From: DASVDK01 sp036381125 [NCBI: Thermodesulfobacteriota bacterium]
GTDB lineage: Bacteria; DASVDK01
DNA: 64,000 nt
Assembly (NCBI GenBank): GCA_036381125.1
Contig: DASVDK010000177.1
Span: 8,164-72,163, forward strand
Direction: 5' to 3'
Every line of letters starts with the position of its first letter. Within the stretch, counting starts at the first letter, position 1. The notes under the pieces are model-generated. The model was not told the DNA's origin and did no database searches. It was given only the letters and a program-made list of their open reading frames with translations. Below are positions 14,779-26,885 of the stretch, piece by piece. The translations under genes were made by a program, and so were the position numbers.

Positions 14779-15585
14779 ATGGTCGAACTCTGTCGCCGCA
14801 TCGCCGAACATCCGGCGTTCCAGCACGTGATCCTGGTGGTCATCCTCGTCAACGCCGTCGTGATCGGCTTCGAGACGTCGCCCGCGGTCATGGCCCGGTG
14901 GGGCGGGTTCCTGCTCGGGCTCGGCACGGCGATCCAGGCGCTCTTCGTCGTGGAGATCCTCGTTCGCCTCGTCGCCTACTGGCCGCGGCTCGGCCGCTTC
15001 TTCACCGACGGCTGGAACGTCTTCGACTTCCTCGTCGTCGCGATCTCGCTCGCGCCGCAGGCCGGCCCGTTCTCGACCGTGGTCAGGCTCGCGCGGGTGC
15101 TGCGCGTCGCGCGCCTGCTGTCGGTGGTGCCGGAGCTGCGGCTCATCATCGGCACGATGCTCCGCTCGATCCCCTCCATGGGGCACGTGATCGCGCTCCT
15201 GTCGCTCCTCCTGTACATCTACGCCGTCGTCGGCTTCTACCTCTTCGGCCGTCACGACCCGTCCCACTGGGGTTCGCTCTCGCAGGCCTTCCTCACTCTC
15301 TTCCAGATGCTCACGCTCGAGGGGTGGGTGGAGATCCAGGCGACCAGCATGGAGGCGGTGCCGCTCGCCTGGATCTACTACGCGAGCTTCGTCGTGGTCG
15401 CGGTCTTCGTCGTGATCAACCTGTTCATCGCGGTCGTCCTCAACAACCTCGAGCGGGCGAAGGACGAGGAGCAGGCGGAAGCCGACCGCAAGAGCCCGCA
15501 GGGCGCGCTCATCGAGCAGGTCGAGCGGCTCAAGGCCGAGCTCGCGCGGCTCGAGCGGGACCTGAGGGCGTCGGGGAGGTCCTGA
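14779..15585 (+). CDS. Bacterial voltage-gated cation channel (NaChBac-like, one domain)
   Basis: This 268-aa protein has six transmembrane segments. The S4 voltage sensor reads VVRLARVLRVARLLSVVPELR (about residues 97-117), with Arg at every third position. The pore loop carries LTLEGWVEI (about residue 180), close to the TLESW selectivity filter of bacterial sodium channels; Gly replaces Ser. A cytoplasmic C-terminal coiled coil (ALIEQVERLKAELARLERDL) should form the tetramer bundle. GGAGGA lies 5 nt before the ATG. Ion selectivity is not certain. Confidence 0.85.
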   Translation: MVELCRRIAEHPAFQHVILVVILVNAVVIGFETSPAVMARWGGFLLGLGTAIQALFVVEILVRLVAYWPRLGRFFTDGWNVFDFLVVAISLAPQAGPFSTVVRLARVLRVARLLSVVPELRLIIGTMLRSIPSMGHVIALLSLLLYIYAVVGFYLFGRHDPSHWGSLSQAFLTLFQMLTLEGWVEIQATSMEAVPLAWIYYASFVVVAVFVVINLFIAVVLNNLERAKDEEQAEADRKSPQGALIEQVERLKAELARLERDLRASGRS

Positions 15586-15766: not shown

Positions 15767-16024
15767 TTACCGGTCGCGATCGGTCGCCGGGCGCAGGTCG
15801 CTCGGGTACGTCGCCACGCGCTTGCGTTCCGCGCGGGACGGGGCGCCGGAGCCGTCGCTCTCGCCGTTCACCGTCTTGCCGGCCGGCATGGCCAGGGGCG
15901 AGGGGGCGGCGGTCTCGATTACCATGCGCCGGTCCCGGGCGATCTCCTCGATGGGCCTGGCGGCGGCAGGCGTGGCGGCGATGGCCGCGAGCGCGACGGC
16001 AAGCGCGACGAACGGGGTCTTCAT
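15767..16024 (-). CDS. Small exported protein with VNGE-D motif (copy 2)
   Basis: This 85-aa protein is homologous to the one at 11101-11355. Signal peptide MKTPFVALAVALAAIAATPA is followed by an acidic/basic stretch, then PSPLAMPAGKTVNGESDG and a basic tail. The first two residues, the signal peptide, the Pro/Leu block, VNGE-x-D and a following AP-x-R are shared. GAGGACCGCCGCC precedes the ATG. The function is unknown. Confidence 0.6.
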   Translation of the reverse strand: MKTPFVALAVALAAIAATPAAARPIEEIARDRRMVIETAAPSPLAMPAGKTVNGESDGSGAPSRAERKRVATYPSDLRPATDRDR

Positions 16025-16470
16025 GGCGGCGGTCCTCGGGGAGGTACGCCCGCCCGGGGAGCATGCTTCGTGCCGGGGCGGGCAGTCACGCAAGAAATCG
16101 AAGAGAGACGGCCGCTTACGTGACACTCCTGTGAGGATCGCGGACTTCCCGCTGCGGCACGGCATTGCGAAACGGAACGACGCCCGCTCCACATGCAACA
16201 GAGCCTCGGCCCTCCGAATCGGAGCCTGCGTCGATCAGGGGCGGAAGCGCTGTACATTGGAGCCTCGCGAAGGTCCACATGGGACGATCGGAGTGACCGT
16301 ATGGCCTGCGAGACGCCTTTCGTGCCCGCTTCTGGGGGCTCGTGTGCGATCGCTGGCGCGCGTGGAGCATCGGAGAAGCGCCCGTGTCCCTCTCCGAACT
16401 GGATCCCGAGATCGTCGCCGAACACGGTCCCGTGAATGCCAGCTTGCCGAGGCTCGTCCAGGCGCGGCCG
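16025..16470. other. Gene-free stretch upstream of the small exported protein
   Basis: No convincing gene is seen in 446 bp. Base composition is less GC-rich than the neighbourhood, as expected for a regulatory region. A short plus-strand frame around 16310-16435 looks codon-like (FWGLVCDRWRAWSIGEA) but has no start signal or recognised homologue. Confidence 0.4.
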
Positions 16471-17058
16471 CTACCCGGCCTGGAGGAGCCGCACGGCCCG
16501 CCCTTCTCGTGCGATCCGCCCCTCGGCCTCGAGCGCGGCGAGGGTCCGGTAGAGCGCTTCGTGCGTGAGGCCGATCTCGGCCGCGACCTGCTTGAGCGGA
16601 CGATCGCCGCCGATCGCGCCGCGCGGGGCCAGGGCGAGGTACTGGAGGACGCGCGCCCGCGCCGATCGGACGTTGCGCAGCTCGAGGCGCGCACGGAGCA
16701 CCTGGATCTGCGCCGCCATCTGCCGCATGAAGCCTTCGGCGACCTCCGGGTCCGCGCGCAGGGCGCGCCTCACGGCCGCCCGGGGCAGCACCGCGACGCG
16801 CGAGGGGACCTCGGCCACGGCGTCGCAGTGGTAGCGGTCGGAGAAGAGCGCCGCCTCGGCGAACGTCTCGCCCGGGCGAGCCACGTGCACCGTCACGCCG
16901 ACCCCCTCGCTCGTGTGCCGGACGAGCAGCACCCGCCCCGCCTCGACCACGAAGATCGCGGTCGTCGCGTACCCCTGTCGGAAGAGGGCTTCTCCGGCCG
17001 CGAGGTCGCGCCGCCGCGCGGAGTCGAGGAGCGCGGCGAAGGGGTCGGCCGCCGTCAT
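16471..17058 (-). CDS. Crp/Fnr-family transcriptional regulator
   Basis: This 195-aa protein has an N-terminal cyclic-nucleotide-binding-like barrel (GEALFRQGYATTAIFVVEAGRV, then RPGETFAEAALFSDRYHC, residues about 18-85), the dimerisation helix and a C-terminal winged HTH (PLKQVAAEIGLTHEALYRTLAALEAEGRI, about residues 155-185). There is no N-terminal cysteine cluster, so it is not an iron-sulfur FNR; a heme/NO (Dnr-like) or unknown ligand is possible. Its ATG overlaps the stop of the exported acetolactate-decarboxylase-like gene by 4 bp (ATGA). The palindrome at 17889 is the likely autoregulatory site. Confidence 0.87.
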   Translation of the reverse strand: MTAADPFAALLDSARRRDLAAGEALFRQGYATTAIFVVEAGRVLLVRHTSEGVGVTVHVARPGETFAEAALFSDRYHCDAVAEVPSRVAVLPRAAVRRALRADPEVAEGFMRQMAAQIQVLRARLELRNVRSARARVLQYLALAPRGAIGGDRPLKQVAAEIGLTHEALYRTLAALEAEGRIAREGRAVRLLQAG

Positions 17059-17831
17059 GCGGCCGGCAGGGACAGGACGGCGCCGCGGGCCACGCCGAAG
17101 GCGTCGAGGTGACCGGTCACCGTCCGCCCGGGGTCGAGCAGGTGGACGTGGATCCGCTCGCCCGGGTGGCTGATGACCCCCTCGAGCGCCGCGCCGGAAT
17201 GGAAGCCCACCAGGTCGGCCGCCATCCGATCGCCCCGCCGGACGACCCGGGCCGCGGCGGCGTGCCTGCCGCGACCGCCGTGCCCACCTCGGCCGCCGTG
17301 CCCGCCGCCCGGCGGCTCGCCGGGACCGGCCAGCACGTGCCAGGCGTAGCCGGTGACGACGCCCCGCACGAGGAAGGGGAAGGGGCGGGAAACGTCGATG
17401 CCGCGGCGCCCCGCCGTCGCGGCGACCGCCGCCTCGAGCGCGGGCATGGAGGCGAGGTCGGCCTCGACCGGCTCCGCCGTCCAGCGGTCCACCCGGGCGG
17501 TCACGAGGAGGGCCGCCTCGGCGTCGCGAGGCGCCGGCACGATCCTGCCGTCGGCTCGCCGACCGTAGCTCACGAAGAGGCGGCTCCCCTCCGCGGTCAC
17601 CTCGCCCTCGAGGCCCGCCAGGGCGCCGACGGCGTAGACGCCGGGCGCGGCGACCGCATCGGCGAGCCTCACCCGCCCGGCGACGGCGCCGTCGCGCATC
17701 ATCCGCTCGAAGTGGCCGTAGACGCGGATGTCGAAGGGCAGGTCGTCGGCGGCGCGGGCGAGGCGGGGCGGCGCCGCGAGGCTGCCGGCGGCCACGGCGA
17801 GGAGCGTGCGGCGAGTGAGCCGAGCGCGCAT
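17055..17831 (-). CDS. Exported acetolactate-decarboxylase-like protein (Tat signal)
   Basis: This 258-aa protein has a twin-arginine signal (LTRRTLLAVAAGSLAAPP). The mature part resembles the acetolactate decarboxylase (AlsD/BudA) fold. IRVYGHFERMMRDGAV and ALAGLEGEVTAEGSRLFV match the N-terminal block, and LEGEV holds the metal-ligand Glu. LVGFHSGAALEGVISHPGER leads into HVHLLDPGRTVTGH, which keeps the H-x-H-x10-H zinc site. A Gly/His/Arg-rich insertion (about residues 172-190) and loss of the catalytic Arg region (RTV is replaced by YAWHV) are odd. Decarboxylase activity is therefore unproven. It is the first gene of an operon with the Crp/Fnr regulator. Confidence 0.7.
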   Translation of the reverse strand: MRARLTRRTLLAVAAGSLAAPPRLARAADDLPFDIRVYGHFERMMRDGAVAGRVRLADAVAAPGVYAVGALAGLEGEVTAEGSRLFVSYGRRADGRIVPAPRDAEAALLVTARVDRWTAEPVEADLASMPALEAAVAATAGRRGIDVSRPFPFLVRGVVTGYAWHVLAGPGEPPGGGHGGRGGHGGRGRHAAAARVVRRGDRMAADLVGFHSGAALEGVISHPGERIHVHLLDPGRTVTGHLDAFGVARGAVLSLPAA

Positions 17832-17888
17832 GGGGTATCCTCCCGGTGCGGGTCCGCCGGCCACTCTGCCGCGGGCCGTCCGGCTCGC

Positions 17889-17906
17889 ATATGATCCGGA
17901 TCATAT
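17889..17906. promoter_or_regulatory. Perfect 18-bp palindrome, candidate Crp/Fnr-family operator
   Basis: ATATGATCCGGATCATAT is its own reverse complement. Its core ATGAT-N4-ATCAT has the 5-4-5 spacing of FNR/DNR boxes (TTGAT-N4-ATCAA). It lies 57 bp upstream of the two-gene operon that ends with a Crp/Fnr regulator. Confidence 0.6.
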
Positions 17907-17918
17907 CATCCGGCGGAG

Positions 17919-18233
17919 GTCGGCGCGGCCAGCGCCCTGGGAGTGGACGTGTCCGAGCGGATGCTGGCGCGTGCGAAGGCGGAGACCCGGGACGCGGCGA
18001 TCTCGTATATCAGGGCCGACCTGGAGGGCCTTCTGGGCAGGGTCCACGCGGCGCTTGCGCCCGGCGGCCATCTGCTCTTCTCGGTCGAGCACCCGATCGT
18101 TACCGCGCCCACCGATCCAGGCTGGTCGGTCGATGCCGCGAGACGCGCGGCGTGGCCCGTCCGCGGGTACCCCGACGAGGGCCCCCGTCGCACGGATTGG
18201 CTCGTGGCGTGCCGCTGTTCGACCTACCGGTAG
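17919..18233 (+). pseudogene. Class I SAM-dependent methyltransferase remnant
   Basis: The frame reads ASALGVDVSERMLARAKAE, a typical motif II region, then ISYIRADLE. It jumps straight to GLLGRVHAALAPGGHLLFSV and EHPIVTAPTDPGW, and ends after GYPDEGPRRTDWL. The N-terminal glycine-rich SAM loop is missing, about 30 residues between ADLE and GLLG are deleted, and the C-terminal third is gone. There is no start codon or ribosome site. It is a truncated relic with no expected function. Confidence 0.7.
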
Positions 18234-19021
18234 CCGGTCGCGTCCGCCGGTCTGCCGGCCTCCTGAACCTCCCGGATGTAGCGCCAGCAGTCCGGTTGCG
18301 ATCCGTCGAGGTCGGTGAAGCCGTAGACCTTCGCGAGCCCGCCGCTCGAGAGCGACTGTCCCGTCCAGCGGGCCTTCTGCGGGTCGGCGGCGAGCGCGGC
18401 GACGGCGCGTCCGACGAAGCGCGGGGACTCGGAGATCACGAAGTGGGGCGACCTGGCCGTGGCGTCGCGCCAGTTCTCCTCGGTGACGCCGTAGGTGTCG
18501 AGCATCATCTCGGAGCGCATCCACCCCGGCGTGATCGACACCGCCGTGGCGCCGTGGCGCGCGAGGTCCCTGGCGTGCGCCCAGGCCATCCGTATGGCGG
18601 CGACCTTGGCGAGGTCGTAGAAGACCGACAGGCGGTAGTGGTCCGCGTTGTACTCCGCCGTGCCGCCGGTCACCTCGACCATGAGGCCGCCGGGGTTCGC
18701 GATTCGAACAGGCGTTCGCCGCCCCAGATGTCGTTCACCAGGACGTCGAGCCGTCCCGTTCCGTCCGGATTCGCGCGACCAGCGCTTCGACCTCGCTCGG
18801 GACGAGATGGTCGACGCGAACCGCGATGCCCTCGCCGCCGGCCCCGGTGACCAACGCCGCGGTCTCCTCGATGGTCTCGGGACGGCCGTACTCCGACATC
18901 TGGCTTCGGGTGGTGCGGCCGGTCACGTAGACCGTGGCGCCTGCCGCGCCGAGCTCGATCGCGATTCCGCGCCCCGCGTCGCGCCGGCGACGAGCGCCAC
19001 CTTTCCCTCGAGCGATCGCAT
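18224..19021 (-). pseudogene. Short-chain dehydrogenase, frameshifted and internally deleted
   Basis: The pieces of one SDR gene lie in three frames. The first is MRSLEGKVALVAGATRGA (start 19021). After a shift near 18970 comes RGIAIELGAAGATVYVTGRT. After a second shift near 18765 comes GRLDVLVNDIWGGERLFE. About 50 codons, including the catalytic region, are deleted before LMVEVTGGTAEYNADHYRL. The last part is intact (FYDLAKVAAIRMAWAHARDL, the Y-x3-K helix, to the stop at 18224). It cannot encode a functional enzyme. Confidence 0.75.
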
Positions 19022-19203
19022 CCGTTCGCCCCGATCTCGCGCGCGTGTCGCGCGCGGCCTCCGTGACCTGCCCCCCGGCTCGGACGTCTCCGGGCGCCCG
19101 GGTCTCCTGGGTGCAGGGTGGCGCCGGCGGGCCGGGCGGCCAACGCACGCGGCGCCTGCGACGGGCCCCCGCGCCGGTCGAGGACCTGACCTGGTCCCCG
19201 GAC

Positions 19204-23742: not shown

Positions 23743-24453
23743 ATGCACGAGGACGACATCTACCGGCAGCTCAAGGCCGCGATCGTCGGCCATCGTCTGC
23801 CTCCCGGGACGCGGCTCGCGGAGGAGTCGCTGGCCGAGGCCTTCGGCGTGAGCCGGACGCCGATGCGCAACGTCCTGCGCCGGCTCTCCTACGAGCGGCT
23901 CGTCGTGATCGAGCGCAACCGGGGCGCGTCGGTCTGCTCGCCGTCCCCCCAGGACGCCCGCGAGGTCTTCGAGATGCGCCGGATCCTCGAGGACGCGGTC
24001 GTGCAGCGGATCGCCTCGCGGCTCGGCCCGGACGATCTCGCGAGGCTCAGGGAGATCGACGCGGCCGACGCCGCGGCCGCGGCCCGGGGCGACTTCCCGG
24101 CCTCGGTGCGCATCGCCGTCGACTTCCACCTGACGCTCGCCAGGTTCACCGGCAACAGCCTGCTCGTGCGCAGCCTCACGGAGCTGGTCGACCTCACCTA
24201 CGTCATCATCGCCCTCTACGGGCAACGGTTCGAGGAGATCGGCCGGACGGAGGGGCACGAGGCGCTCCTCGCCGCGCTCGAGGCGCGCGACGAGGCTCGC
24301 GCCCGCGCCGTCATGCGCGAGCACCTCGACCGGCTGGTCGCCGATCTCGACTACTCGCGTCCGGCCAGCCGGGAGATCGACTTCCGGCGCCTCTTCGCCC
24401 CGGCCTGGCAGAGCCGCCGGGGGGTCATCGGCGCACGCGGAAGAGGGCGCTGA
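23743..24453 (+). CDS. GntR-family (FCD) transcriptional regulator
   Basis: This 236-aa protein has an N-terminal winged HTH (RLAEESLAEAFGVSRTPMRNVLRRLSYERLV, about residues 25-55) and a C-terminal all-helical FCD ligand domain with D-x3-H (DFHLTLARFTGN) and the later EGHEALLAALEARD. FCD members usually respond to carboxylic acids and often bind a metal through these residues. It is divergent from the isochorismatase gene (57 bp). It is the best candidate regulator for the 19204-23685 nitrogen-compound cluster. Confidence 0.88.
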   Translation: MHEDDIYRQLKAAIVGHRLPPGTRLAEESLAEAFGVSRTPMRNVLRRLSYERLVVIERNRGASVCSPSPQDAREVFEMRRILEDAVVQRIASRLGPDDLARLREIDAADAAAAARGDFPASVRIAVDFHLTLARFTGNSLLVRSLTELVDLTYVIIALYGQRFEEIGRTEGHEALLAALEARDEARARAVMREHLDRLVADLDYSRPASREIDFRRLFAPAWQSRRGVIGARGRGR

Positions 24454-25957
24454 GGAGCCGCTTCACGCCCGGCGTGAGCTTCCTCCGACGCCACGCGTCC
24501 GCGGCCTTCCTCACGACCTCGGCCTGGGTGGGGTAGGGGTGGATCGTCCGGGCGATGGCGCCGAGGCCGATGCCGGCCGTGCAGGCGAGCGCGAGTTCGC
24601 CGACGATGTCCCCCGCGTGCTCGGCCACGATCGTGGCGCCGAGGATCCGATCGCCGCCGGCCTCGACGTGCACGCGCAGGAACCCCTCCGTCGCGCCGTC
24701 GAGCACGGCGCGGTCGACCTCCTCGAGCGGCACGGTGATGGTCTCCGCCGGGATGCCGGCCCGCGCCGCATCCGCTGCGGACATCCCGACGTGAGCGACC
24801 TCCGGGCTCGTGTAGGTGCACCGGGGCACCACGAGGCGCGAGGCCTTGCCGCGGCCGAAGAAGAGGGCGTTGGCCACGACGAGGCGCGCCTGGGCGTCGG
24901 CCACGTGGGTGAACTGGAGGCGCGAGCAGACGTCGCCGATGGCGTAGACCCTCGGGTTCGTCGTGCGGAGCCGGTCGTCCACCGTCACGCCGCCCGGGCC
25001 GCAGGCGACGCCCGCCCGGGCGAGGTCGAGCGACTCGACATTGGGCGTGCGGCCGGTCGCGACGAGGATCGCGTCCGCGACGACGGTCTCCAGCCGGCCG
25101 CCCTGTCGGACGTGGATCGCCGCCCCGGCGCCGCGCCGCTCCACCCGCTCGAGCGCGACCCCCGCCTGCACGACGACGCCGTCGCGCGTCATCGAGGCCT
25201 CGACCAGGCGCGCGGCGTCGGGGTCCTCCCGGGGCAGGATCCGGGGCGCGGCCTCGAGCAACGTCACCCGGCTGCCGAACCGGGCGAACGCCTGCGCCAG
25301 CTCGCAGCCGGCGGCGCCCGCGCCGATCACCGCGAGGCGTTCGGGCAGGGACTCGAGCGAGAAGACGGTCTCGTTGGTGAGGGGGGCGGCTTCGGCGAGG
25401 CCGGGGACGGGCGGAATCGTGGGGCGCGCGCCGGTGGCGATGACGCAGCGCCGGAAGACGAGCCGCGCGCCGTTCACCTCGACGGCGTCCGGGCCGGCGA
25501 AACGCCCCTCGCCGAGGAACACGTCCACGCCGAGGTCGCGGTAGCGACGGACGCTGTCGGTCTTCGAGAGGTCGGCGCGCAGCCGGCGCATGCGGCGCAT
25601 CGCCGCGCCGAAGTCGCCCGGGCCCGAGACCGCCGGTGCGCCGAAGGCCTCGGCGCCGCGGCGGGTCTCGTGCCACGCGCGCGCCGCGCGAATCAGGGCC
25701 TTCGAGGGGACGCAGCCCACGTTGAGGCAGTCGCCGCCCATGAGACGGCGCTCGACGAGCGCCACGCGAGCCCCGAGGGCGGCGGCCGCCGCCGCGGTGA
25801 CGAGCCCGCCCGGCCCCGCGCCGATGACGACCAGGTGGTAGCGCGACTTCGGGTCGGGGTTGACGTAGCCGTCCGGGTGGACGTTGGCGAGGTGTCGGCG
25901 GTTCGCCTCGTCGAGCGGGTGGACGAGGCCGGGCGGACTACCGTCCCGCGGCGGCAT
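24425..25957 (-). CDS. FAD/NAD disulfide oxidoreductase (mercuric-reductase/LpdA-like)
   Basis: This 510-aa flavoprotein has a 40-residue N-terminal extension, then VVIGAGPGGLVTAAAAA (FAD Rossmann, about residue 44) and the redox-active pair GGDCLNVGCVPSKALI (about residue 75). NAD-binding LAVIGAGAAGCELAQAFARF, YAIGDVCSRLQFTHVA and the dimerisation domain with HPYPTQAEVVRKAAD follow. The final His-Pro motif is the dihydrolipoamide/glutathione-reductase base; there is no terminal Cys-Cys pair, so mercury reduction is unlikely. It overlaps the TVP38 gene upstream by 20 bp, a pairing common in bacteria. Confidence 0.87.
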   Translation of the reverse strand: MPPRDGSPPGLVHPLDEANRRHLANVHPDGYVNPDPKSRYHLVVIGAGPGGLVTAAAAAALGARVALVERRLMGGDCLNVGCVPSKALIRAARAWHETRRGAEAFGAPAVSGPGDFGAAMRRMRRLRADLSKTDSVRRYRDLGVDVFLGEGRFAGPDAVEVNGARLVFRRCVIATGARPTIPPVPGLAEAAPLTNETVFSLESLPERLAVIGAGAAGCELAQAFARFGSRVTLLEAAPRILPREDPDAARLVEASMTRDGVVVQAGVALERVERRGAGAAIHVRQGGRLETVVADAILVATGRTPNVESLDLARAGVACGPGGVTVDDRLRTTNPRVYAIGDVCSRLQFTHVADAQARLVVANALFFGRGKASRLVVPRCTYTSPEVAHVGMSAADAARAGIPAETITVPLEEVDRAVLDGATEGFLRVHVEAGGDRILGATIVAEHAGDIVGELALACTAGIGLGAIARTIHPYPTQAEVVRKAADAWRRRKLTPGVKRLLSALFRVRR

Positions 25958-26639
25958 CGGTCGCCTCCTGGAGCGCTCGCCGGGCGATGCGCGTGACGAG
26001 CATCGTCGCGGCGAGCGTCGCGACGAGTCCCAGCGCCAGCACCGCGTAGTATCCCACGCCTCGCGGCATCGCCGTGCCGGACGCCAGCCGCGCCAGGTCG
26101 CCGGCCACCGTGCCGTAGTACACGTAGAGGACCATGCCCGGAAGCATACCGACCGAGGCGACGAGGTAGTCGACGAAGCGGACGCGCGTGAGGCCGAGGG
26201 CGTAGTTCAGGACGGTGAAGGGAAAGACCGGCGACAGGCGCAGGAGCAGCACGATCGTCCGTCCGTTTCGCCCGATCGCCCGATCGATGGCGGCGAGCCG
26301 GTCGTCGCCCGCGAGCCGCCGCTCCACGGCCCCGCGGGCCGCGTATCGCGCGATCAGGAACGCGGCGCAGGCGCCCGCGGTGGCGCCGATGGCGACGTAG
26401 AGGATCCCCGCGAGGCCGAAGAGCGCCCCGGCCGCCAGGGTGAGGACCGAGCCGGGCACGAAGGCGACCGTCGCGAGCGCGTAGCCGACCACGAAGGCGG
26501 CCGGCGCGGCGCTGCCGAGGCGGTCCACCCAGCCGAGGACCCACTCGACGTGCGCCCCGACCGCGTGGCCGAGGGCGAGCACGAGCGCGCCCAGGAGGGC
26601 GGCGCCGACGGCGGCCAGGGCGGTCCTGCGCCCGATCAC
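25938..26639 (-). CDS. TVP38/TMEM64 (DedA-like) membrane protein
   Basis: This 233-aa protein has six hydrophobic segments. The SNARE-associated/VTT signature is visible: VAFVPGSVLTLAAGALFG, then ARYAARGAVERRL, then LLRLSPVFPFTVLNYALGLT. The GTG at 26639 follows GGGAGA by about 8 nt and gives the usual length; an upstream ATG (26711) would add an unlikely hydrophilic tail. Related proteins scramble or transport lipids. It is co-transcribed with the oxidoreductase that follows. Confidence 0.82.
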   Translation of the reverse strand: MIGRRTALAAVGAALLGALVLALGHAVGAHVEWVLGWVDRLGSAAPAAFVVGYALATVAFVPGSVLTLAAGALFGLAGILYVAIGATAGACAAFLIARYAARGAVERRLAGDDRLAAIDRAIGRNGRTIVLLLRLSPVFPFTVLNYALGLTRVRFVDYLVASVGMLPGMVLYVYYGTVAGDLARLASGTAMPRGVGYYAVLALGLVATLAATMLVTRIARRALQEATDAAAGR

Positions 26640-26885
26640 GACGCGTCTCCCATCGGTCGTGATGCTTGCACATGGCCGCGCCCTTGACAGGGCCGTCCGT
26701 CCCGACGGCAAGCGCCGCCACGCCCGCGGCCGGCGGAGTCGGGCGCCCGACCGTCGTGACCATCGGGCCGGAGGGCCCGCCCCGGCCGGCGCGGTGGTTG
26801 CCGGGGGCTCCGGGCGCCGGCGGCCCTCCCGTCGACGGTCGTCCGGGCGGCCTGCGTCGTCCTCGCCGGCGCGAACCTCTCGCGG

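What the first reader, a model, noticed from the sequence alone, without database searches (positions are those of the whole stretch)
17055..17906. Exported acetolactate-decarboxylase homologue coupled to a Crp/Fnr regulator under an FNR-spaced palindrome
The protein keeps the Glu and the H-x-H-x10-H zinc ligands of acetolactate decarboxylase but has a Tat signal, so it would fold in the cytoplasm with metal and act in the periplasm. There is no acetolactate synthase next to it. Its stop overlaps the start of a Crp/Fnr regulator, and the operon lies below ATATGATCCGGATCATAT, whose core has FNR/DNR spacing. A periplasmic role outside acetoin synthesis, switched by a gas or redox signal, would be new.
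Basis: partly seen in the sequence, partly recalled or inferred. Interest (0 to 1): 0.65.

Follow-up and report, generated by a model that had tools for sequence, protein, structure and literature searches.

The report
Exported AlsD-like protein, metal-linked Crp/Fnr operon
A secreted relative of a fermentation enzyme has lost part of that enzyme's active site and sits under a DNA switch whose regulator family, in other bacteria, lies beside histidine-rich secreted proteins, mostly inside copper and heavy-metal gene islands, so it is probably a metal-handling protein rather than an acetoin enzyme.

Summary
In detail: window 17055-17831(-) encodes an exported, distant acetolactate decarboxylase (AlsD) homologue. 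Its stop overlaps a Crp/Fnr gene (16471-17058), and a perfect 18-bp palindrome (17889-17906) lies 57 bp upstream. The gas/redox reading is not supported.

E77 and H228/H230/H241 (AlsD Glu65, zinc triad) remain. The Arg145 position is His in all 8 aligned members, and C-terminal Glu253 is absent.

The regulator has one Cys, so no FNR-type cluster. It belongs to a subfamily with His-Cys where CRP binds cAMP. All 22 such plasmid loci fetched carry the same operator type (ATATGAT-N4-ATCATAT) beside an exported-protein gene (4 of 22 look frame-broken). Across 23 loci, window included, a -10-like element stands 20 bp past the operator (its A in 22), and an ATG 50-63 bp past it (22). Three regulators without His-Cys lack the site. 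17 of 22 loci have metal genes nearby.

One AlsD relative is fused to the LTXXQ "Metal_resist" protein that is the partner elsewhere.

Best reading: a metal-responsive (probably copper) Crp/Fnr activator driving a periplasmic metal-handling protein, here an AlsD-fold one. Metal sensing and binding are inferred.

The parts
17055..17831 (-). exported AlsD-like protein P0001 (258 aa); Tat-like signal about residues 1-27; H165 at the AlsD Arg145 position; His/Gly-rich loop about residues 174-193; E77, H222, H228, H230, H241 conserved
16471..17058 (-). Crp/Fnr regulator P0002 (195 aa), single Cys (C78) in the motif Y-H-C-D-A at the cAMP phosphate-binding position
17889..17906 (.). operator ATATGATCCGGATCATAT, same family as the site beside 22 of 22 fetched His-Cys Crp/Fnr genes on plasmids
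17863..17868 (-). -10-like hexamer CAGAGT, 20 bp past the operator, which puts the operator centre at -41.5 (class II activator geometry) if the hexamer starts at -12
   Evidence: A at hexamer position 2 in 22 of 23 loci, T at position 6 in 17 of 23

Best explanation
The operon is a regulator-plus-exported-protein module. The Crp/Fnr protein does not use cAMP or an Fe-S cluster; it senses a metal, most likely Cu(I), or a closely linked thiol signal, through the His77-Cys78 pair that replaces the cAMP-binding Arg-Ser. The activated dimer binds ATATGAT-N4-ATCATAT centred at -41.5 and activates, class II fashion, the gene for an exported protein. Because crp is the second gene of the operon here, it also raises its own level. 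The exported AlsD-like protein keeps the AlsD zinc triad and Glu but not Arg145 or Glu253. It carries a His-rich loop and would bind, buffer or chaperone metal in the periplasm instead of decarboxylating acetolactate. Shown: sequence features, operator conservation, promoter geometry, gene contexts, the fusion. Inferred: the ligand, the direction of regulation, metal binding, loss of decarboxylase activity.
For: (1) 22 of 22 fetched plasmid relatives of P0002 with His-Cys have the operator as the best match in their 6-8.6 kb locus (11-14 of 14), at the crp boundary next to an exported-protein gene (partners in L036, L046, L050 and L053 look frame-broken and that of L043 truncated). The three fetched relatives without His-Cys (Thermus, Thiothrix, Enterococcus) have no such site by crp. 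(2) Counting the window, A at hexamer position 2 in 22 of 23 loci and an ATG 50-63 bp after the operator in 22 of 23; the window has 57. (3) The partners are exported proteins of two kinds with His-rich parts, one scoring as Metal_resist/LTXXQ. The Burkholderiaceae AlsD-like protein L006 is fused to that same LTXXQ type (54.5% identity to the Microvirga partner, E 8e-51). (4) 17 of 22 loci have annotated metal genes besides the partner: Cu/heavy-metal P-type ATPase, HMA, DUF411, CDF, multicopper oxidase, CopC/CopD, four-helix copper protein and the like (tallied). (5) AlsD-like genes elsewhere: L004 in an ECF sigma/anti-sigma/Metal_resist cluster, a remnant L002 in a copper island, and broken copies L007/L028 with metal-efflux-like genes some kb away (by eye). 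(6) Arg145 position His in 8 of 8, Glu253 absent.
Against: No other AlsD-like locus examined shows a His-Cys regulator beside it or a good operator: best score 10-11 of 14 in L079-L081, no score of 12 or more in L001-L007, L026, L027, L034. The window near the operon has no obvious metal gene. Several AlsD-like loci (L001, L005, L027, L034) have no evident metal neighbours. Distant relatives L079 and L080 lack H222, and a truncated copy L081 has Tyr at the H165 position. The His-rich loop is clear in only about five of the eight aligned members (by eye). Metal neighbourhoods are common on plasmids, and one of three non-His-Cys controls (Enterococcus) also lies beside a heavy-metal ATPase. Six of the 22 loci are close Roseobacteraceae relatives (69.9-100% identical to L040). 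5 of 22 loci show no metal gene. Two loci carry a Rieske petA gene and one a FixH gene, which points to respiration rather than metal resistance.
Confidence: 0.6

Rival explanations
1. Same module, but the regulator senses a reactive or thiol signal (oxidant, reactive sulfur, copper-made radicals) at Cys78, and the exported partners are envelope-stress chaperones or holdases rather than metal binders.
For: LTXXQ proteins include the Spy/CpxP-type stress proteins (recalled). A DsrE gene adjoins one His-Cys regulator and YeeE/YedE genes lie about 3 kb from another, beside a different Crp/Fnr gene. One strictly conserved Cys.
Against: His is as invariant as Cys in the 16 aligned. Partners have His-rich parts, and metal genes are the commonest neighbours (17 of 22).
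Confidence: 0.2
2. One reading: a periplasmic AlsD-type enzyme switched by NO, O2 or redox through an FNR/DNR-like regulator.
For: Nearest solved relative of the regulator profile is DNR (3dkw, E 9e-23). Distant AlsD-like gene L079 lies near a gene that reads by eye as a cytochrome cd1-like protein and has a weak site ACATGATCCTAATCATTC 35 bp before its ATG. Rieske petA or FixH genes near three His-Cys regulators. An FNR element before budR of the ordinary acetoin operon is described in PMC10466699 (passages).
Against: One Cys only, so no Fe-S cluster. The operator arms are ATGAT/CATGAT, not TTGAT. Metal genes are the commonest neighbours, and I saw no denitrification gene named in the 22 loci. 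Arg145 and Glu253 lost.
Confidence: 0.1
3. A still-active enzyme with a new substrate: the AlsD fold with a rebuilt site (E77, H165, H222, H228, H230, H241) works on a periplasmic keto-acid or similar compound, for example one that makes or breaks a metal-binding metabolite.
For: The three zinc His, the Glu and two added His are invariant in the 8 aligned proteins, a strong constraint for a mere metal buffer. L080 has no evident signal and sits beside an aldehyde dehydrogenase-like gene (by eye).
Against: I saw no biosynthetic or transport partner shared between loci. His-rich loop, LTXXQ fusion and metal contexts.
Confidence: 0.15

Closest known systems
Acetolactate decarboxylase, AlsD/BudA (PF03306, TIGR01252; structures 4bt2, 5xne, 6inb)
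   Same: Homologous over the core; Glu65, His194, His196 and His207 conserved
   Different: Arg145 position is His, C-terminal Glu253 absent, 3-residue insertion with H222, His-rich loop in most, exported; far below the TIGR01252 cut-off (16.8 of 180.65 bits)
Crp/Fnr family: CRP, FNR, DNR
   Same: cNMP-binding domain, C-terminal HTH, palindromic operator with TGAT-N4-ATCA core; DNR is the nearest solved relative
   Different: His-Cys-Asp in place of the cAMP-binding Arg-Ser; no Fe-S cysteines; extended ATATGAT or ACATGAT arms
Metal_resist / LTXXQ periplasmic proteins (PF13801, PF07813)
   Same: Sit under the same operator and regulator subfamily; fused to an AlsD-like domain in L006
   Different: No sequence similarity to the AlsD-like domain noted; no LTXXQ protein seen next to the window operon
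Known bacterial copper sensors (CueR, CsoR, CopY, CusRS; named from the listings and from recall)
   Same: Probably the same job: switching on metal-handling genes
   Different: None of these is of the Crp/Fnr type (recalled)

Membership tests
Acetolactate decarboxylase (EC 4.1.1.5) | Homology over the core of the domain | tested here: met
   hhalign 98.9%, E 1e-17, 182 columns; the single sequence alone gives 50.5%, E 1.6e-4
Acetolactate decarboxylase (EC 4.1.1.5) | Zinc triad His194/196/207 and Glu65 | tested here: met
   H228, H230, H241, E77 invariant in 8 of 8; positions in 4bt2 counted from the alignments
Acetolactate decarboxylase (EC 4.1.1.5) | Active-site Arg145 and Glu253 (roles recalled from the literature) | tested here: not met
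   His at the Arg145 position in 8 of 8, against Arg in 8 of 8 ordinary AlsD; the protein ends before Glu253
Acetolactate decarboxylase (EC 4.1.1.5) | Equivalog score TIGR01252 | tested here: not met
   16.8 bits, cut-off 180.65
Acetolactate decarboxylase (EC 4.1.1.5) | AlsD fold by structure prediction | tested here: inconclusive
   AlphaFold2 pLDDT 37 with four sequences; no fold search run on it
FNR (oxygen sensor) | Cysteines for a 4Fe-4S cluster | tested here: not met
   one Cys in P0002
CRP (cAMP receptor) | Arg-Ser in the phosphate-binding cassette | tested here: not met
   Y-H-C-D-A at that place; CRP residues and register recalled
DNR/NnrR (NO sensors) | haem or NO binding | not testable with these tools
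   sequence similarity only
His-Cys Crp/Fnr module (described here) | His-Cys motif, ATATGAT-type operator, -10-like element 20 bp on, exported partner gene with an ATG 50-63 bp past the operator | tested here: met
   the window meets every point

The most novel reading that the evidence does not exclude
A Crp/Fnr lineage has turned its cyclic-nucleotide pocket into a His-Cys metal (copper) sensor and, through a -41.5 class II operator of its own, switches on interchangeable exported metal proteins. One of these is an acetolactate decarboxylase fold rebuilt as a periplasmic metal-binding protein.
Probability: 0.45. Interest if true: 0.78.

Novelty: new variant of a known kind. Interest (0 to 1): 0.62.

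Why it matters
If true, the large Crp/Fnr superfamily gains a metal-sensing branch with a defined operator and promoter geometry, testable at once in culturable rhizobia and roseobacters. Some proteins annotated as acetolactate decarboxylase, such as the one on an Acinetobacter plasmid, would be misannotated metal-handling proteins. It would also give a route to the unnamed His-rich exported proteins found beside metal genes.

Tried and rejected
Related-loci scan with P0001 alone found nothing; phages gave no match and viral contigs none. Acetoin synthesis was rejected as the role because of the lost Arg145/Glu253 and because no synthase was seen among the neighbours looked at. An FNR oxygen switch was rejected because of the single Cys. 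'Crp beside metal genes is specific' was weakened by the Enterococcus control. The search for a His-Cys regulator in eight AlsD-like genomes is incomplete: six gave a Crp/Fnr match, three of these were read and have no His-Cys (L061-L063), three were not resolved by my script (L064-L066).

Literature: ten searches listed no paper that I recognised as describing a metal-responsive Crp/Fnr regulator of this kind or an AlsD-like metal protein. I saw titles and abstract starts of the listed rows only (several lists were capped), apart from passages of PMC7908345 (a table row naming a Crp/Fnr regulator among metal-resistance genes), PMC2121137 and PMC10466699. 'crp fnr' may not match text printed as 'Crp/Fnr', so searches are weak evidence; one search used 'fnr family' instead and listed 9 papers.

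Full report
WHAT IS THERE. On the minus strand of the window, 17055-17831 encodes a 258-residue protein (P0001). Its stop overlaps the start of a 195-residue Crp/Fnr regulator (P0002, 16471-17058; overlap). The perfect palindrome ATATGATCCGGATCATAT lies at 17889-17906, with 57 bp between it and the ATG. TGAT-N4-ATCA occurs once in the 64 kb (mean 0.13 expected); the 18-mer with up to three mismatches also occurs once (0.00 expected). The next best match in the window to the 14 specified bases scores 9.

THE EXPORTED PROTEIN. Alone, P0001 scores 23.1 bits against PF03306, just under the cut-off of 25. Four relatives (Acinetobacter plasmid, Desulfobacteraceae MAG, Zwartia, Burkholderiaceae MAG) score 48.7-57.7 bits. 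Alignment A4 holds eight intact members including P0001; alignment A5 holds eight ordinary AlsD from other genomes. Profile comparison: 98.9%, E 1e-17 over 182 columns. Against 4bt2 the conserved residues are Glu65 and His194/196/207. The position of Arg145 is Arg in 8 of 8 ordinary AlsD and His in 8 of 8 of this group; the group ends before Glu253. That these two residues are catalytic is recalled from the literature. Further traits of the group: invariant H222 in a 3-residue insertion, and a stretch between H165 and the C-terminal half that is clearly His-rich in about five of the eight (by eye; little of it in L026 and L032). Signals differ: Tat-like in the window, Sec-like in most, a lipobox in L032 (by eye). 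More remote members weaken the picture: L079 and L080 keep the His at the Arg145 position but lack H222, L080 has no evident signal, and a truncated copy L081 has Tyr there.

HOW COMMON IT IS. Surveys with A2 or A4 found members of this group in few genomes. Counts are genomes with any match, centre genome included: 6 of 297, 3 of 369, 3 of 268, 6 of 99, 1 of 398, 4 of 194, 3 of 173, 9 of 180. Eight of the weak matches were read and are ordinary AlsD; the other weak ones were not examined. Samples overlap in part. The distribution is patchy, with broken copies in Acinetobacter (L007, L028) and a remnant in Variovorax (L002), as for a horizontally moved gene.

THE REGULATOR. P0002 has one Cys. 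I fetched 25 plasmid relatives from the hit lists (206 and 121 records in all; my picks from the top rows and from spread rows, not a random sample). 22 have His-Cys where CRP has the cAMP-binding residues (Y-H-C-D-A, with HHCDA, YHCEA, YHCDG and YHCGA variants). In the 16 aligned, P0002 included, His and Cys are invariant. The other three (Thermus, Thiothrix, Enterococcus) lack it.

THE OPERATOR. In all 22 His-Cys loci the best match to ATATGAT-N4-ATCATAT in 6-8.6 kb lies at the crp boundary beside an exported-protein gene (scores 11-14 of 14). That partner gene looks frame-broken in four loci (L036, L046, L050, L053) and truncated in L043. In shuffled sequence a score of 12 or more appeared anywhere in a locus in 0-1 of 100 trials (five loci tried). 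The three other regulators have no such site near crp (best 8, 10 and 11, elsewhere). Counting from the operator end towards the exported gene, A at index 21 is present in 22 of 23 loci and T at index 25 in 17 of 23, window included. With five near-duplicates dropped (L043, L044, L045, L054, L060), 12 of 18 have both, and no other offset scanned has more than 3. An ATG lies 50-63 bp from the operator in 22 of 23 (33 in L041). In 15 of the 22 plasmid loci it is the annotated start. In the others it is my reading: L038, L046, L050, L051 and L060 have another annotated start, and L053 has no annotated partner. If the hexamer at index 20-25 is the -10 box, the operator centre lies at -41.5, the class II activator position of Crp/Fnr proteins (recalled). 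Three gene orders share this geometry: divergent crp, crp upstream, and crp downstream of the exported gene (the window).

PARTNERS AND NEIGHBOURS. The exported partners are of two kinds: LTXXQ/Metal_resist (e.g. L037, L041, L047, L051, L054, L060) and an unnamed His-rich protein of about 175-225 aa (e.g. L038-L040, L042-L045, L048, L049, L052, L058, L059). The window adds a third, the AlsD-like protein. The link is direct in L006, an AlsD-like domain fused to an LTXXQ protein 54.5% identical (E 8e-51) to the Microvirga partner L037, which sits under the operator. Besides the partner, metal genes are annotated in 17 of 22 loci (tallied; DUF411 counted as metal from recall, and in L051 it is the only one). 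None were seen in L036, L039, L041, L047 and L058. Six of the 22 are close Roseobacteraceae relatives. One of three controls (Enterococcus) also has a heavy-metal ATPase, so context alone is not specific. Rieske petA genes (L040, L044) and a FixH gene (L060) also occur.

MECHANISM. Shown: sequences, operator, geometry, contexts, fusion. Inferred: the regulator activates its partner; its ligand is a metal, probably Cu(I) at His77/Cys78; the AlsD-like protein binds metal in the periplasm. Against this: no other AlsD-like locus examined shows the regulator or a good operator. Of eight genomes with AlsD-like genes searched with A6, six have a Crp/Fnr match; the three that I could read have no His-Cys, and three were not resolved. 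The window operon has no obvious metal neighbour.

NOVELTY. Ten literature searches listed no description that I recognised of such a regulator or of an AlsD-like metal protein (listings only, with the limits given under Tried and rejected). FNR control linked to ordinary acetoin operons is known (PMC10466699, passages), so the FNR-AlsD link as such is not new. I rate this a new variant of a known kind: a Crp/Fnr branch plus a repurposed AlsD fold.

Noticed in passing
window 15767-16198 (-): Short ORF downstream of crp that may encode a small exported protein from an internal ATG; no Pfam match.
   Followed up: no
window 17943-19148: Remnants upstream of the operon: a methyltransferase-like fragment (by eye, no Pfam match) and an SDR-like gene that looks frame-broken, suggesting a rearranged spot.
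   Followed up: no
window 24425-26711 (-): Pyridine nucleotide-disulphide oxidoreductase next to a VTT-domain membrane protein; VTT genes also neighbour several His-Cys Crp/Fnr loci.
   Followed up: no
window 14779-15585 (+): Single-domain Ion_trans channel of 268 aa (157 bits), reading like a bacterial voltage-gated channel.
   Followed up: no
L039-L060, crp start codons: In many of the divergent loci a crp ATG lies at or inside the operator's far edge, which suggests leaderless mRNA and self-repression.
   Followed up: partly
L040 3391-3915, L042 3389-3913, L048 2342-2911 and similar: Unnamed family of His-rich exported proteins (...GQSAFAA..EIV..L..DP.TDW...LR.HL.DM...); the four scanned (L040, L048, L049, L052) have no Pfam match at E 0.05; under the same operator wherever seen here.
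   Followed up: partly
L036, L046, L050, L053, L043: Partner genes that look frame-broken (first four) or truncated (L043) beside the conserved operator; the annotated crp of L053 is also short.
   Followed up: partly
L004 6278-8753: Desulfobacteraceae cluster with ECF sigma, AlsD-like protein, zf-HC2 anti-sigma and Metal_resist protein, followed by ABC transporter-like genes.
   Followed up: partly
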